Part shown: one piece after another, positions 47,900-56,867 of the stretch
Numbering within the stretch: position 1 is the stretch's first letter
Layout: each line of letters starts with the position of its first letter
Origin: Longimicrobium sp.
GTDB lineage: Bacteria; Gemmatimonadota; Gemmatimonadetes; Longimicrobiales; Longimicrobiaceae
Assembly (NCBI RefSeq): GCF_035474595.1
Contig: NZ_DATIND010000092.1
Span: forward strand, 1-64,000
Direction: 5' to 3'
DNA length: 64,000 nt
Translations under genes and position numbers: made by a program
The notes under the pieces: model-generated
Told to the model about the DNA's origin: nothing
Database searches by the model: none
The model's input: only the letters and a program-made list of their open reading frames with translations

Positions 47900-48076
47900 T
47901 TAGAAGCAGGCGTCGATGCAGGTGTAGCCGAAGCAGGTGCCCACGAGCGGGTCGCAGGTGTACTGGTTCGCCTTGGTGCGGGCGTACGCCTCGACCGTGC
48001 CGGCCTCGACCTCGACCGCGGCGGTCTCGAAGGCGCTGACCTGCAGGTCGTCGATGTTCAGCGAGATCTTCTTCAT
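47900..48076 (-). CDS. RiPP precursor-like peptide 2, pinensin-type leader, 4 Cys
   Basis: 58 residues. Leader KKISLNIDDLQVSAFETA; core-like end CDPLVGTCFGYTCIDACF. The motif TCFGYTC is nearly the same as TCYGYTC in peptide 4, although the genes are 13 kb apart. GGGAGG lies 10 bases before the ATG at 48076 with GGTAGCAGG between, a strong site for so small a gene. A 16-bp terminator follows. An inverted repeat AACCCCT/AGGGGTT (48205-48226) and a possible promoter (TTGTGT-17-TAGGTT on the minus strand) lie upstream. No maturation enzyme is adjacent. Confidence 0.78.
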   Translation of the reverse strand: MKKISLNIDDLQVSAFETAAVEVEAGTVEAYARTKANQYTCDPLVGTCFGYTCIDACF

Positions 48077-51345: not shown

Positions 51346-51687
51346 ATGTCTACGGTACGCATCGAGGCGCCGGGAGAAGAGGCGCGCCGGGAAGAGTGGG
51401 ACGGGCTGGATGGAGCGGCGGTGGACGCCTTTCTCGGCGCCGCCCGTCGGGAAGCCGGGTCCTTCGCCGCCGCCGGCTCGGGGGACCGCGTGGTCGGCTA
51501 CAGCGCCACGGGAGACGCGGACGGAGTCGTCGTGTTCGTCAGCGAGCGGAACGGCCAGATCGCCTCCCTGAGCCCCGGCGCCGAGCTCCTGCTGGAGAAC
51601 GCGCGGCACGAGAAGTGGGCCCGGGAGCGGAGAAGCGCGGCGGACCCCGCCGGAAGCGAAGCCCATCCTGAAACTGAATCCGCCTGA
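51346..51687 (+). CDS. Small acidic hypothetical protein paired with the beta-helix gene
   Basis: 113 residues, acidic, no signal or TM. STVRIEAPGEEARREEWDGL and VVGYSATGDADGVVVFVSER suggest a small alpha/beta fold. The start is 14 bases after the beta-helix stop, with GGAGGGGG 6-13 bases before the ATG, so it is co-transcribed. It could be an assembly helper or partner for the beta-helix protein; that is context only. No family is recognised. Confidence 0.65.
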   Translation: MSTVRIEAPGEEARREEWDGLDGAAVDAFLGAARREAGSFAAAGSGDRVVGYSATGDADGVVVFVSERNGQIASLSPGAELLLENARHEKWARERRSAADPAGSEAHPETESA

Positions 51688-51706
51688 ACTTGTGGGTGGA
51701 CGTCGC

Positions 51707-51736
51707 TTGACACGCGGCGCCGCGCACCGGTAGAGT
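51707..51736 (+). promoter_or_regulatory. Promoter of the threonine operon
   Basis: TTGACA (51707-51712), 18 bases, TAGAGT (51731-51736). The start ATG of the leader peptide is 8 bases after the -10, so the transcript would begin at or next to it. TTGACACGCGGCG is shared with the promoter at 61643. Confidence 0.6.
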
Positions 51737-51743
51737 TGAAGCC

Positions 51744-51833
51744 ATGACGAACGCCGCCATCCGCACCACCGGCACCACCACTACCACCACGACCCGTCTC
51801 ACGGGCCGCGGCCGGGAGTGCTTGCGCCGGTAG
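51744..51833 (+). CDS. thrL: Threonine operon leader peptide
   Basis: 29 residues: MTNAAIRTTG, then seven Thr in a row (codons 11-17, bases 51774-51794), then RLTGRGRECLRR. Eleven of 29 residues are Thr and one is Ile. It lies 98 bases upstream of thrA, with a terminator between. E. coli ThrL has the same logic (runs of Thr and Ile codons), though the sequences are not related. Stalling of the ribosome on these codons when charged tRNA-Thr is scarce would free the antiterminator strand at 51799. No ribosome-binding site is seen, consistent with a leaderless start. Confidence 0.82.
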   Translation: MTNAAIRTTGTTTTTTTRLTGRGRECLRR

Positions 51834-51893
51834 TCGAGAAGGCGCGGTTCACCAGCAGGACGCGAGCGGCCCGTGAGCGATCACGGGCCGCTC
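51799..51893 (+). promoter_or_regulatory. Threonine attenuator: antiterminator and terminator
   Basis: Terminator: GAGCGGCCCGTGA (51864-51876) pairs with TCACGGGCCGCTC (51881-51893), loop GCGA, then TTCGTCTTGTCCCC. Antiterminator: TCACGGGCCGC inside thrL (51799-51809) is identical to the 3' arm, so it can pair over 11 bases with GCGGCCCGTGA (51867-51877). A ribosome stalled on the Thr codons leaves 51799-51809 free; one that reaches the stop at 51833 covers it and lets the terminator form. Confidence 0.82.
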
Positions 51894-51931
51894 TTCGTCT
51901 TGTCCCCATCCCCAAGACCCACGAGGACCGC

Positions 51932-54406
51932 ATGCCCCCGGAACGCCTGGTGGTGCACAAGTTCGGCGGGACCAGCCTGGCCGGCGCGGAGCGCTACCGC
52001 GCCGTGGCGGAGATCGTCCTCGCGCGCCCCGAGCCGCGGCGCGCCATGGTCGTCAGCGCCATGGCGGGGGTGACGGACGGGCTGGTGCGCGCGGTGCGGC
52101 TGGCGGGCGCCCGCGACGCCGCGTACGAGCGCGAGATCGCGGCGCTGCGCGAGCGCCACCGCCGGACCGCCGCCGAGCTCCTCCCGCCCGCCGAGGCGGA
52201 ATCGGTCGCCGAGGCGATGGAGCGCGAGCTGGCCGACGTGCACGACGTGCTGCGCGCCGCCTGGATCCTGCGCCACGCCCCGCGCGGCGGCGCCGACATG
52301 GTGTCCGGCGTGGGCGAGGTCTGGTCCGCGCGGCTGCTGGCCGCGTACCTGGGCACGCGCGGCGCGGGCGGCGCCTGGCTGGACGCGCGCGAGGTGCTGG
52401 TCGCCGAGCCCGGCGAGACGACGGCGCGGGTGGACTGGCCCGCCACGCGCGAGCGGCTGCGCGCGTGGGAAGCGGCGCGCGGCGGCATCCCCCCGATGCT
52501 CGTGGTAACCGGCTTTGTCGCCTCCACCGCGGCGGGCGTCCCCGCCACGCTGGGGCGGAACGGGAGCGACTTCTCCGCCTCCATCTTCGGCGCGCTGCTG
52601 GGGGCCGACGAGATCCACATCTGGACCGACGTGGACGGGGTGATGAGCGCCAACCCGCGCCTCGTCCCCGAGGCCATCGTCCTCGACCGCCTGAGCTACC
52701 GCGAGGCGATGGAGCTGGCGCACTTCGGCGCCAGGGTCGTCCACCCGGCGACGATGGGGCCCGCGGTGGAGCGCGGCATCCCCCTCTACATCCGCAACAC
52801 CTTCCGCCCGGACGCGCCGGGAACGCGCATCGACGCCGACGGCGCCCCGGTGCGCATGGTGAAGGGGCTTTCCACGGTGGAGGGCGTGGCCCTGCTGAAC
52901 CTGGAGGGGCCGGGGATGCGCGACGTGCCCGGCACCGCGCACCGCCTGTTCGCCGCGCTCCGCGAGGCCGGCGTGGAGCCGCTGATGGTGTCGCAGGGAA
53001 GCTCGCAGAACTCCATCTGCCTGGCCGTGCCCGCCGCGCTGGCCGGCGCGGCGCGCGGGGCGGCCGACGCGGCCTTCTTCGCCGAGCGCCACCACGGGCA
53101 GGTGCGTGAGACCGAGGTCGACGCCGACTGCTGCCTCCTCGCGGTCGTGGGCGACGGGATGGCGGGGAACCCCGGCGTGGCCGCGCGCTTCTTCGGCGCG
53201 CTGGGGAAGGCGGGCGTGAACATCCGCGCGATCGCGCAGGGCTCGTCGGAGCGCAACATCTCCGTGGTGGTCGGCGGAAGCGAGGCCGAGCGTGCCTTGC
53301 GCGCCGCGCACGCCGGGCTGTACCTGTCCGGGCAGACGCTCTCCATCGGGGTGATCGGCAGCGGCGTGGTGGGAGCGGCGCTGCTGGACCAGCTGGCCGC
53401 GCGCGCCCCCGCCATCCGCCGCGAGCGCAACGTGGACCTGCGCGTGCGCGCCATCTGCACCTCGCGCGCGATGGCGCGGGACGATCGCGGCATCGCGCTC
53501 GGCGGCTGGCGGGGGGAGATGGCGCGCGGCGACGCGCCGGATCTGGACGCCTTCGCCGCGCACGTGCAGACCGAGCACCTGCCGCACGCGGTGATCGTGG
53601 ACTGCACGGCCGACGAGTCCATCGCGCGGCGGTACGCGGAGTGGCTGCGGCGCGGCATCCACGTGGTGACGCCGAACAAGCGCGCGAACACGCTGGAGCT
53701 GGACTACTACCGCCAGCTGCGGGCGCTGGGGCGCGGCGCGGGCGGGCACTACCTGTACGAGACCACGGTCGGCGCGGGGCTCCCCATCATCCAGACGCTG
53801 CGCGACCTGATCGACACGGGCGACGAGGTGCAGCGCATCGAGGGCGTCCTTTCGGGGACGCTGTCGTACCTCTTCAACGCCTTCGACGGGGTGCGGCCGT
53901 TCTCGGAACTGGTCGGCGAGGCGCGGCGCGAGGGGTTCACCGAGCCCGACCCGCGCGACGACCTGTCCGGCGCCGACGTGGCCCGGAAGGTGGTGATCCT
54001 GGGACGGGAGATGGGACTGGAGATGGAGATGGCGGACGTGGAGCTGGAAGGACTGGTGCCCGACGGGCTGCGCGGCGGGAGCGTGGACGACTTCCTCCGC
54101 CGCCTGGGCGAGCACGACGAGCCGATGACGCGGATGTGGCGCGACGCGCACGGGCGCGGCGAGCGGCTGCGCTTCGTCGGCGCCGTCGAGCGGGACGGGC
54201 GGGCGACGGTGCGGCTGCGCGCCTATCCGGCCACGCACGCATTCGCGCGGCTGAACCGCACCGACAACCTGGTGCAGTTCCAGACGCGGCGGTACACGCC
54301 CAACCCGCTGATCGTGCAGGGCCCCGGCGCCGGGCCGGAGGTCACGGCCGGCGGCGTCTTCGCGGACCTGCTGCGCCTGGCCTCGTACCTGGGGGGCGCC
54401 TCGTGA
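51932..54406 (+). CDS. thrA: Bifunctional aspartate kinase / homoserine dehydrogenase
   Basis: 824 residues. Aspartate kinase at about 1-300 (VVHKFGGTSLAGAERY; GRNGSDFSASIFGALLGADE), two ACT-type regulatory modules at about 315-460 (LNLEGPGMRDVPGTAHRLFA; NPGVAARFFGALGKAGVNIR), and homoserine dehydrogenase at about 470-824 (IGVIGSGVVGAALLDQLA; VVTPNKRANTLELDYY; IEGVLSGTLSYLFNAFD). Catalyses steps 1 and 3 from aspartate; feedback inhibition by threonine is expected from the ACT modules. GAGGA lies 6 bases before ATG 51932. Preceded by an attenuator; the stop overlaps thrB (GTGA). Confidence 0.95.
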   Translation: MPPERLVVHKFGGTSLAGAERYRAVAEIVLARPEPRRAMVVSAMAGVTDGLVRAVRLAGARDAAYEREIAALRERHRRTAAELLPPAEAESVAEAMERELADVHDVLRAAWILRHAPRGGADMVSGVGEVWSARLLAAYLGTRGAGGAWLDAREVLVAEPGETTARVDWPATRERLRAWEAARGGIPPMLVVTGFVASTAAGVPATLGRNGSDFSASIFGALLGADEIHIWTDVDGVMSANPRLVPEAIVLDRLSYREAMELAHFGARVVHPATMGPAVERGIPLYIRNTFRPDAPGTRIDADGAPVRMVKGLSTVEGVALLNLEGPGMRDVPGTAHRLFAALREAGVEPLMVSQGSSQNSICLAVPAALAGAARGAADAAFFAERHHGQVRETEVDADCCLLAVVGDGMAGNPGVAARFFGALGKAGVNIRAIAQGSSERNISVVVGGSEAERALRAAHAGLYLSGQTLSIGVIGSGVVGAALLDQLAARAPAIRRERNVDLRVRAICTSRAMARDDRGIALGGWRGEMARGDAPDLDAFAAHVQTEHLPHAVIVDCTADESIARRYAEWLRRGIHVVTPNKRANTLELDYYRQLRALGRGAGGHYLYETTVGAGLPIIQTLRDLIDTGDEVQRIEGVLSGTLSYLFNAFDGVRPFSELVGEARREGFTEPDPRDDLSGADVARKVVILGREMGLEMEMADVELEGLVPDGLRGGSVDDFLRRLGEHDEPMTRMWRDAHGRGERLRFVGAVERDGRATVRLRAYPATHAFARLNRTDNLVQFQTRRYTPNPLIVQGPGAGPEVTAGGVFADLLRLASYLGGAS

Positions 54407-55347
54407 CGCCTCCGTCGCGCGCCACGGCCTTCGCCCCCGCCAGCACCTCCAACCTCGCCGTCGGCTTCGACCTCCTCGGCCATCCGCTGGCGCTGTATGG
54501 AGATCGCGTGACGGTCACGCGGCGCGCGTCCCCCGGTGTCGTGATGGGCGCGGTGACGGGAGTCGCCGGCCCGCTGCCGGCGGACCCCGCCGCGAACACC
54601 GCGGGGACGGCGGTGATGCGCTTCCTGGCCGACCACGCGCCGGGGCTGGGCGTGGAGGTGGCGATCGAGAAGGGGATCCCGCTGGGCTCGGGGATCGGGG
54701 GATCGGCCGCCTCCGCAGTGGCCGCGGTGGTCGCAGCGAACGCGCTGCTCCCGGAGCCGCTCCCCGCCGCCGCGCTCTTCCGCTACGCGCTGATGGGCGA
54801 GGCGGTCGCCAGCGGGGCGATGCACGGCGACAACGTGGCCCCATCGCTCTTCGGCGGGCTGGTGCTGGTGCGCGCCGCCGATCCGCCGGACGTGGTTCCC
54901 CTCCCCGCCCCGCCCGCGCTGCGCTGCGTCCTCGTGCTCCCGCGCCTGCGGCTGGACACGCGCGACGCCCGCGCCGTGCTGCCGAAGTCCGTGCCGCTGG
55001 GCGACTTCATCCACCAGTGCGCGAACCTGGCCGGCGTGGTGGCGGGGTGCTTCCGCGGCGACCTGGCGCTCATCGGCCGCTCGCTGCGCGACGAGGTGAT
55101 CGAGCCGCACCGTGCCGCCCTCATCCCCGGCTTCGCCGCCGTCCAGGCCGCCGCGATGGACGCGGGCGCGCTCGGCTGCTCCATCTCCGGCGCCGGCCCC
55201 AGCCTCTTCGCCTGGTGCGATGAGGATGAAGATGCCGAGCGCGCGCGGATCGCGATGGTCGCTGCCTTCGCCGCCGCCGGAGTCGCCGCCGAGGGCTGGA
55301 CGTCGCCGGTCGACGGCCCGGGCGCGCGGCTGGAGGACGTGGGGTGA
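54403..55347 (+). CDS. thrB: Homoserine kinase
   Basis: 314 residues, GHMP kinase family. ATP loop IPLGSGIGGSAASAVAAVVA; N-terminal ATAFAPASTSNLAVGFDLLG; C-terminal LGCSISGAGPSLFAW. Phosphorylates homoserine for ThrC. The GTG start overlaps the thrA stop by 4 bases. Confidence 0.95.
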   Translation: MTPPSRATAFAPASTSNLAVGFDLLGHPLALYGDRVTVTRRASPGVVMGAVTGVAGPLPADPAANTAGTAVMRFLADHAPGLGVEVAIEKGIPLGSGIGGSAASAVAAVVAANALLPEPLPAAALFRYALMGEAVASGAMHGDNVAPSLFGGLVLVRAADPPDVVPLPAPPALRCVLVLPRLRLDTRDARAVLPKSVPLGDFIHQCANLAGVVAGCFRGDLALIGRSLRDEVIEPHRAALIPGFAAVQAAAMDAGALGCSISGAGPSLFAWCDEDEDAERARIAMVAAFAAAGVAAEGWTSPVDGPGARLEDVG

Positions 55348-55574: not shown

Positions 55575-56867
55575 ATGAGATACATCAGCACGCGCGGCCA
55601 ATCCGATCCCGTCCCGCTCTCCGCGGCGGTGGAGCGCGGGCTGGCGCCGGACGGCGGCCTCTACGTCCCCGAGGCGTATCCCCCCATCGCGCCCGAGGCG
55701 CTGGACGGCGCGGAGACGCTGGCGGAGGTCGCCGAGCGGCTGCTGGCGCCGTTCTTCGCGGGCGATGTGCTGGCGCCCGCGCTGGGCGCCATCTGCCGCG
55801 AGGCGTTCACCGTTCCCGTGCCGCTGCGAGATCTGCGCGATCGCACCGCCGTGCTGGAGCTGTTCCACGGGCCGACCGCGGCGTTCAAGGACGTGGGCGC
55901 GCGCTTCCTGGCCGCGCTGATGTCGCGCCTCGACGGCGGCGACGCGCGGCCGCTCACCATCCTCGTCGCCACCTCGGGCGACACCGGCGGCGCGGTGGCG
56001 GCGGCGTTCCACGGGCGCCCGGGCGTGGAGGTCGCCGTGCTGTATCCGGCGGGGATGGTGTCGCCGCGGCAGGAGAAGCAGCTCACCGCGTGGGGCGGCA
56101 ACGTGCGCGCGTTCGCCGTGCGCGGCGCCTTCGACGACTGCCAGCGCCTGGTGAAGGCGGCCATGGCGGACCCGGCGCTCCGCGCGGCGCGGCGATTGTC
56201 GTCGGCCAACAGCATCAACGTGGGCCGGCTGCTGCCGCAGATGGCCTATTACGCCTGGGCCGCGCGCGAGTACGTCCGCCGCCACGGCGCGGAGCCGGGC
56301 TTCGTCATCCCCTCGGGCAACCTGGGCAACGCCGCGGCGGCGCTCTGGGCGCGCCGCGCCGGGCTCCCCATCCGCCAGGTGGTGATGGCCACGAACGCGA
56401 ACCGCGCCATCGCCGCGTTCGCCGCGGGCGGCGCGTGGGCCGCGCACCCGACCGTGGCCACGCTCGCCAGCGCGATGGACGTGGGCGATCCCAGCAACAT
56501 GGAGCGCATCTTCCACCTCTTCGGCGGCCACGAGCCTGCGCGCGCGGCGCTGTGCGCGGAGCAGGTGGACGACGACGAGATTCGCCGCGTGATCCGCGAA
56601 GGCGAATCGCGGTGGGGCACCGTGTGGGACCCGCACACCGCCACCGCCATCGCCGCGCGCGAGCGCCTCGGCGGCAGCGACTGGATCGTCGTCGCCACCG
56701 CGCACCCCGCCAAGTTCGAGGCCGTCGTCGAGCCGCTCGTCGGCCACGAGATCCCCATCCCCCCCGAGTTGCAGCGCCTCCTCGGCCGCCCCTCCCACGC
56801 CGAGCCCCTGGAGCCCACCCTCGACGCCTTCCGCGCCGCGCTGGAGGGCGAATCAGAGGGGAGATAA
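55575..56867 (+). CDS. thrC: Threonine synthase
   Basis: 430 residues, PLP enzyme: phosphohomoserine to threonine. The PLP lysine is in FHGPTAAFKDVGARFLA; VATSGDTGGAVAAAF is the phosphate-binding loop; RYISTRGQSDPVPLSAAVER is the typical N-terminus. The start at ATG 55575 is 227 bases after thrB, the gap being filled by an inverted pair of family 3 repeats, so coupling to the operon may be altered. A TGGCCGGAATGAG stretch precedes the start without a clear ribosome-binding site. Confidence 0.95.
   Translation: MRYISTRGQSDPVPLSAAVERGLAPDGGLYVPEAYPPIAPEALDGAETLAEVAERLLAPFFAGDVLAPALGAICREAFTVPVPLRDLRDRTAVLELFHGPTAAFKDVGARFLAALMSRLDGGDARPLTILVATSGDTGGAVAAAFHGRPGVEVAVLYPAGMVSPRQEKQLTAWGGNVRAFAVRGAFDDCQRLVKAAMADPALRAARRLSSANSINVGRLLPQMAYYAWAAREYVRRHGAEPGFVIPSGNLGNAAAALWARRAGLPIRQVVMATNANRAIAAFAAGGAWAAHPTVATLASAMDVGDPSNMERIFHLFGGHEPARAALCAEQVDDDEIRRVIREGESRWGTVWDPHTATAIAARERLGGSDWIVVATAHPAKFEAVVEPLVGHEIPIPPELQRLLGRPSHAEPLEPTLDAFRAALEGESEGR

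What the first reader, a model, noticed from the sequence alone, without database searches (positions are those of the whole stretch)
51744..51893. Complete threonine attenuator with an exact 11-bp antiterminator
A 29-codon leader with seven consecutive Thr codons (51774-51794) is followed by a 13-bp terminator (51864-51893). TCACGGGCCGC occurs both inside the leader (51799-51809) and as the terminator 3' arm, so the leader copy can pair with the 5' arm instead. Placing a stalled ribosome on the Thr run leaves 51799 free; a ribosome at the stop codon covers it. All parts of the classical model are in place, outside Proteobacteria as far as the gene content suggests.
Basis: partly seen in the sequence, partly recalled or inferred. 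Interest (0 to 1): 0.75.

Follow-up and report, generated by a model that had tools for sequence, protein, structure and literature searches.

The report
Threonine attenuator from a recoded family
The switch in front of this bacterium's threonine genes looks like a genuine "ribosome stalls, gene turns on" attenuator, and almost the same switch, with its sensing codons rewritten for tyrosine, phenylalanine or histidine, sits in front of the matching amino-acid genes in related bacteria.

Summary
In detail: 29-codon leader, seven consecutive Thr codons, exact 11-nt repeat, 13-bp terminator, then thrA-thrB-thrC. In folding, stalls at Thr codons 51765-51789 give the antiterminator (P=0.95-1.0), while no ribosome, or one at the stop, gives protector plus terminator. 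The leader has no Shine-Dalgarno site and starts 7 nt after a -10 box, so it is probably leaderless.

The larger result is a family. A model built only from Tyr/Phe/His leaders finds this Thr attenuator as the window's top hit (77 bits, E=1.5e-19). The scaffold matches in 142 of 394 genomes of the class. Of 96 hits inspected, 92 have a leader ORF; in 88 of 91 with a readable gene the leader's amino acid fits it. The antiterminator strand covaries with the terminator arm. I call it a new variant of classical attenuation: one leaderless scaffold recoded for four amino acids. There are no expression data, and common descent is inferred.

The parts
51707..51712 (+). -35 box TTGACA
   Evidence: 18-nt spacer; conserved in relatives
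51731..51736 (+). -10 box TAGAGT; ends 7 nt before the leader ATG, so the predicted transcript starts at about 51743-51744 (leaderless; start site not measured)
51744..51833 (+). leader peptide ORF, MTNAAIRTTGTTTTTTTRLTGRGRECLRR*
51774..51794 (+). seven consecutive Thr codons (sensor); further Thr codons at 51747, 51765, 51768
51793..51797 (+). strand 1 (CCCGT), pairs with 51801-51805 to form the protector hairpin
51799..51809 (+). strand 2, antiterminator strand TCACGGGCCGC; pairs with 51866-51876
51824..51845 (+). candidate hairpin across the leader stop codon (51824-51828 with 51841-51845); conserved in part of the family
51864..51876 (+). strand 3, 5' arm of the terminator
51881..51893 (+). 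strand 4, 3' arm of the terminator
51894..51901 (+). T-rich tract after the terminator (interrupted: TTCGTCTT)
51932..54406 (+). thrA, fused aspartokinase-homoserine dehydrogenase, with an SD-like GAGG upstream
54403..55347 (+). thrB, homoserine kinase (GHMP kinase domains)
55575..56867 (+). thrC, threonine synthase

Best explanation
A ribosome-sensed transcription attenuator that senses charged tRNA-Thr. RNA polymerase probably starts at the leader's AUG, so a ribosome loads on a leaderless message. With enough Thr the ribosome passes the run; strand 1 pairs with strand 2 behind it, strand 3 pairs with strand 4, and transcription stops before thrA. When Thr is short the ribosome stalls in the Thr run and covers strand 1; strand 2 is free, pairs with strand 3 as it emerges, and transcription reads through into thrABC. 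The element is one member of a family found across the class, in which the same leaderless scaffold carries Thr, Tyr, Phe or His codons to match the downstream gene. Shown: anatomy, co-varying pairings, codon-gene match, score against a model of the other members. Inferred: transcription start, stalling, read-through, common descent and the direction of the codon swap.
For: Anatomy. Folding with the 3' end before strand 4: A-site stalls from 51765 to 51786 give P(2:3)=1.0 and 51789 gives 0.95; no ribosome gives P(1:2)=0.96 and P(2:3)=0; ribosome at stop gives 1:2 about 0.8-0.97 and, once strand 4 is made, 3:4 = 1.0. Across 48 leaders the 2:3 pairing is at least 7 bp in 46; inner pairs 136 against 80 +/- 6 shuffled, 0 of 10000 as high. 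Model R3, built from 23 non-Thr members, hits the window's attenuator at 77.2 bits, E=1.5e-19; the next hit not on the same hairpin has 14.6 bits. 88 of 91 leaders match their gene in three classes, 0 of 10000 permutations as high. Strict promoter at 48 of 92 leaders against 2 of 1812 other ATGs; SD-like motif at 7 of 92 leaders against 28 of 44 DAHP-synthase/hisG starts.
Against: No expression data. Folding at equilibrium with the full transcript always favours the terminator, so read-through rests on the order of folding. Outer 2:3 pairs do not exceed shuffles (138 against 142.9), because those bases hardly vary. In alignment A2 alone, covariation of 2:3 is only weakly above shuffles (35 of 500). 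The U-tract here is interrupted. Thr is codon 2, and a stall there gives P(2:3) of only 0.21; a stall at the last codon of the run (51792) gives 0. Strand 1 is intact in most but not all A2 members. thrA in three other genera or species of the family has no leader.
Confidence: 0.85

Rival explanations
1. The Thr, Tyr, Phe and His attenuators are unrelated and look alike only because GC-rich genomes build similar hairpins and short promoters.
For: The elements are short and GC-rich. The loose three-strand pattern occurred no more often than its reversed control in the 21 family genomes. Thr leaders in other genera (L044, L046, L047) use other stems and are not found by R3, so Thr attenuation did arise more than once.
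Against: R3, trained without Thr members, scores 77.2 bits on the window and 84.8, 76.4 and 57 on three relatives, against 11-24 bits or nothing for other Thr attenuators. The strand-2 anchor lies in the same codon phase in 40 of 48 leaders and exactly 29 nt before the stop in 29 of 48; pairing alone does not need this, though the model's fixed spacing favours it.
Confidence: 0.15
2. The hairpin is only a transcription terminator that sets basal expression, and the leader is a by-product.
For: The terminator is very stable; at equilibrium it always wins; G001 keeps the terminator with a degenerate leader.
Against: Codon-gene concordance of 88 of 91 and a strand 2 that covaries with strand 3 are not expected of a bare terminator. 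In G001 the thrA frame is also split.
Confidence: 0.05
3. The leader peptide acts as a protein, and its recurring ...TGRGxRRxMR tail is under protein selection.
For: The Arg-rich tail recurs in many leaders; a leader peptide acting in trans is known in Sinorhizobium meliloti (PMC7298713, start of abstract in a listing and passages read).
Against: TGR is what strand 2 encodes, and bases next to it covary with strand 3; several members have lost or shortened the tail (L257, L313).
Confidence: 0.05
4. The attenuator came with thrA from Gammaproteobacteria by gene transfer.
For: The window's thrA falls in a supported clade with proteobacterial and acidobacterial thrA, apart from many thrA of its own order.
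Against: R3 gives at most 11.1 bits on the four Xanthomonadales loci given to it; the same scaffold stands before a distant thrA lineage (G033, 42-43% identical) and before aromatic and his genes in the class.
Confidence: 0.05

Closest known systems
Threonine operon leader of enterobacteria (thrL; Rfam Thr_leader, number recalled as RF00506)
   Same: Thr-rich leader peptide, competing antiterminator and terminator, thrABC downstream
   Different: No Rfam leader family matches the window, at gathering threshold or with E up to 10 on 51650-51960. Here the antiterminator strand lies inside the leader ORF, the leader is probably leaderless, and the scaffold is shared with Tyr, Phe and His operons. 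That thrL senses Thr plus Ile and has an SD site is recalled.
Leaderless leader-peptide attenuators of Streptomyces lividans and S. meliloti trpL (PMC8079986, PMC7298713; passages read)
   Same: The leader ORF begins at the transcript's 5' end, codons match the downstream gene
   Different: Separate leaders per amino acid; the passages read do not report a shared scaffold with swapped codons
Shared His leader of hisZ and a hisS paralogue in bacilli (PMC2965389; passages read)
   Same: One leader sequence reused at two genes
   Different: Same amino acid at both genes, no recoding
T-box riboswitches (recalled)
   Same: One scaffold re-specified for many amino acids by changing a codon
   Different: T-boxes bind tRNA directly; here a translating ribosome is the sensor

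Membership tests
Classical ribosome-mediated transcription attenuator | Short ORF rich in codons of the regulated amino acid, just upstream of its biosynthetic gene | tested here: met
   88 of 91 across the family
Classical ribosome-mediated transcription attenuator | Intrinsic terminator between leader and gene | tested here: met
   13-bp stem, loop 4, then a T-rich but interrupted tract
Classical ribosome-mediated transcription attenuator | Mutually exclusive antiterminator, conserved by covariation | tested here: met
   inner pairs only, outer pairs nearly invariant; shuffling does not remove relatedness
Classical ribosome-mediated transcription attenuator | Protector (1:2) hairpin that is blocked by the stalled ribosome | tested here: met
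   by folding; strand 1 conserved in most of 12 members, not in G033 as aligned
Classical ribosome-mediated transcription attenuator | Read-through responds to charging of the cognate tRNA | not testable with these tools
   needs RNA measurement
Rfam amino-acid leader families (Thr, His, Phe leaders) | Match to the family covariance model | tested here: not met
   (window); 0 matches on 11 loci of the family
Leaderless mRNA | Transcript starts at the start codon | tested here: inconclusive
   promoter 7 nt upstream and no SD; no start site was measured
Recoded scaffold family described here | Found by a model trained without Thr members | tested here: met

The most novel reading that the evidence does not exclude
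One ancestral leaderless attenuator has been copied between operons across a bacterial class and had only its sensor codons rewritten (Tyr, Phe, His, Thr), so that it acts as a plug-in amino-acid sensor, as T-boxes do but with a ribosome as reader. The window's Thr copy would be a Tyr-type leader changed residue by residue (YYAYTYYYATRDTGRG in G011 against TTGTTTTTTTRLTGRG here).
Probability: 0.65. Interest if true: 0.75.

Novelty: new variant of a known kind. Interest (0 to 1): 0.63.

Why it matters
Leader-peptide attenuators are usually treated as having arisen separately for each operon (recalled; Naville and Gautheret, PMC2965389, passages read, consider repeated emergence). A single scaffold with swapped codons would show how specificity evolves, give a natural series for testing which parts are sensor and which are switch, and offer a modular regulator. 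It also gives many aromatic, his and thr operons in this class a testable regulator where Rfam has none.

Tried and rejected
Rejected: 'ribosome at the stop codon masks strand 2' (geometry). Rejected: gene transfer of the attenuator with thrA from Gammaproteobacteria.

Led nowhere: the loose pattern CGGGCC-N25-55-GGCCCG-N3-18-CGGGCC was no commoner than its reversed control in 21 genomes and missed the window's own copy, whose 2-3 gap is too long; it served only to find candidates. A frameshift route from (TAC)n to (ACT)n or (CAC)n to (ACC)n was considered; the codon-by-codon match to G011 does not favour it and it was not tested. Own hisG has no attenuator; it follows hisZ-like sequence. hisG of other genera does.

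Rows dropped: one search left out 14 of the loci then held (monofunctional kinases, fragments or matches without a 5' end) and 4 regions without a KFGG anchor, leaving 100. Searches left out L321 (contig ends; a leader is present), L322 (DAHP synthase downstream, no leader ORF by my rule), L323 (G001, degenerate leader) and L339 (no leader, no gene: a false positive). Searches used only the 52 order hits (48 rows); searches used 92 of all 96 inspected hits. The 96 are 52 and 44; I took the higher-scoring ones, and the weaker matches were not inspected. Leader starts were chosen with a preference for ones with a promoter, which raises the promoter count somewhat. 12 of the 96 trained R1; the 44 were outside the training of R2.

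Literature searches: (10 of 10). None listed a paper on this scaffold or on attenuators in this class; subscription journals and preprints are mostly not held.

Full report
1. The observation. The leader ORF 51744-51833 encodes MTNAAIRTTGTTTTTTTRLTGRGRECLRR; seven Thr codons lie at 51774-51794; TCACGGGCCGC lies at 51799 and 51881, its complement at 51866. The terminator is a perfect 13-bp stem. Downstream are thrA at 51932-54406 (aspartokinase, ACT and homoserine dehydrogenase domains), thrB at 54403-55347 and thrC at 55575-56867. One run of seven Thr codons occurs in the window and the mean over 200 Markov sequences is 0.0.

2. Promoter and start. TTGACA (51707-51712), an 18-nt spacer and TAGAGT (51731-51736) put the expected transcription start about at the A of the leader ATG; the leader has no SD-like site while thrA has GAGG. 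The pattern TTGACA-N17-18-TANNNT-N5-8-ATG has 7 matches in the whole genome and 0 for the reversed control; one is this leader, and the other six read into longer genes or other short frames. Over 92 leaders of the family a strict version fits 48, against 2 of 1812 other ATGs in the same loci; SD-like motifs stand before 7 of 92 leaders and before 28 of 44 DAHP-synthase or hisG starts. Leader starts were picked with a preference for promoters, so 48 is somewhat favoured.

3. Mechanism by folding. With the transcript ending at 51878 (strand 3 made, strand 4 not), and free RNA assumed to begin 14 nt after the first base of the A-site codon, a stall at any Thr codon from 51765 to 51786 gives P(2:3)=1.0 and at 51789 0.95; at 51792 it is 0, at codon 2 (51747) 0.21. 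Without a ribosome 1:2 is at 0.96 and 2:3 at 0. With a ribosome at the stop the upstream piece forms 1:2, and the downstream piece forms the terminator once strand 4 is made (the two pieces were folded apart). With the full transcript the terminator always wins. So the antiterminator needs a ribosome inside the run, and strand 1 is the part it blocks.

4. Relatives at thrA. Among 61 genomes (relatives), 53 match thrA at E<=1e-3; many of these are other aspartokinases. In 100 thrA upstream regions that could be anchored the window's type of attenuator is present in G000, G008, G006 and G033; G001 has the terminator but a degenerate leader, and its thrA match is split in two pieces. L007-L009, from other genera of the family, have none. 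Other Thr or Ile/Thr leaders, with other stems, precede thrA in L013, L018, L019, L042, L044, L046, L047 and L112, the Thr content of L042 being low; L042, L044, L046 and L047 again have TTGACA-18-box-7-ATG as read by eye.

5. The family. An exact search for the terminator alone (strands 3 and 4, nothing asked of strand 2) gave 8 of 154 genomes, control 0. Five stand before thrA. The other three stand before aromatic genes with a leader to match: MTMHQSYYAYTYYYATRDTGRGWRRMRG before DAHP synthase (G011), MIVRQSSYAYVYYYAPRNTGCVRRRLRG before phenylalanine hydroxylase and DAHP synthase (G013), MTHRAFFAFTFFAFAARGGARGAA before prephenate dehydratase (G027). Twelve were aligned and modelled as R1.

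6. R1 over the order: 74 of 154 genomes at E<=1e-3; the weakest are noisy. R2, from 48 members, over the class: 142 of 394 genomes at E<=1e-7, including further families. I inspected 52 loci from the first round and 44 from the second. Of 96, 92 have a leader ORF by my rule; 91 of these have a readable gene: thrA 4, DAHP synthase 34, phenylalanine hydroxylase 24, chorismate mutase 3, chorismate mutase then prephenate dehydratase 3, prephenate dehydratase 8, hisG 15. Gene classes rest on tblastn to six references, themselves checked in Pfam. The commonest residue among T, Y, F, H, W fits the gene class in 88 of 91; permutation never exceeded 68. Phe and Tyr are also told apart: hydroxylase, which makes Tyr, has Tyr commonest or tied in 23 of 24, and prephenate dehydratase alone has Phe commonest or tied in 8 of 8. 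The three misses are two with Thr commonest (L319, L375) and one hisG leader with Thr and His tied.

7. Covariation. In 48 leaders strand 2 and strand 3 pair over at least 7 bp in 46 (6 bp in L313, 3 in L332). Inner pairs, next to the loop, total 136 against 80.1 +/- 6.2 after shuffling partners, 0 of 10000 as high; outer pairs total 138 against 142.9, no signal, as they hardly vary. For example CCCGTGA goes with TCACGGG here, CCCGTCCGG with CCGGACGGG at hisG (L331, L334), CCCGCG with CGCGGG (L302, L304). Relatedness is not removed by this shuffle. A first version of this test with a worse anchor gave 243 against 187.8 in total. In A2 alone the signal is weak (35 of 500).

8. Homology of the Thr copy. 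R3, built from 23 Tyr, Phe and His members only (rows were aligned through R1), ranks the window's attenuator first in 64 kb at 77.2 bits, E=1.5e-19; the next match not on the same hairpin has 14.6 bits. It also finds the Thr copies in L004 (84.8), L005 (76.4) and L020 (57.0), the decayed one in L006 (37.9), L013 weakly (24.0), and not the Thr leaders of L044, L046 or L047; of four Xanthomonadales loci only L142 shows anything (11.1). E-values of these models are rough by the tool's own warning.

9. The same genome's Tyr attenuator. DAHP synthase at G000:C31 has the leader MSNVTACAFWCYYYRLPHGNPELVARG 7 nt after a TACTGT box, with a different stem (GAGGGCTCCCGA...); all 8 genomes of the genus with this gene, of 10 searched, have a leader with Tyr codons there. 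R3 does not find the G000 one. So in this genus the Tyr copy has changed its stems and the Thr copy keeps the class-wide ones.

10. Gene history. The window's thrA lies in a clade with proteobacterial and acidobacterial thrA (100/100), apart from that of G033 with the same attenuator; the tool warns of long branches for L019 and L020. Scaffold and gene thus appear to have different histories.

11. Known or new. No Rfam family fits. Leaderless leaders are known in Streptomyces and S. meliloti (PMC8079986, PMC7298713, passages read). A leader reused with the same amino acid is known in bacilli (PMC2965389, passages). Ten searches found no report of this scaffold or of one recoded for several amino acids. 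As a Thr attenuator the finding is a good example of a known kind; as part of a recoded, probably leaderless family it is a new variant.

Noticed in passing
window 47900-48076 (- strand): A 58-aa peptide MKKISLNIDDLQ...CFGYTCIDACF looks like a RiPP precursor (leader plus Cys-containing core); a similar one lies in L289.
   Followed up: no
L390 (G000:C31, upstream of 13256) and L394-L400: Probably leaderless Tyr leader with a different stem before DAHP synthase in all 8 genomes of the genus that have the gene.
   Followed up: partly
L042, L044, L046, L047: A second, apparently unrelated Thr or Ile/Thr attenuator before thrA, again with TTGACA-18-box-7-ATG.
   Followed up: partly
L142, L149, L162 (Xanthomonadales): Thr leaders there also start about 7 nt after a possible -10 position that follows TTGACA by 18 nt, so they may be leaderless too.
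   Followed up: no
L257 and L258 (G016): Two DAHP synthase copies, one behind a Phe-type and one behind a Tyr-type leader, both near contig ends.
   Followed up: no
L006 (G001): Terminator kept, leader degenerate, thrA match split in two pieces: decay of the operon or an assembly error.
   Followed up: no
A2 columns 54-75; window 51824-51845: A small hairpin across the leader stop codon recurs with changed sequence in several members; its role is unexplained.
   Followed up: partly
L265 and L293: A conserved GC hairpin between two apparent transporter genes matched the loose pattern; no leader peptide.
   Followed up: no
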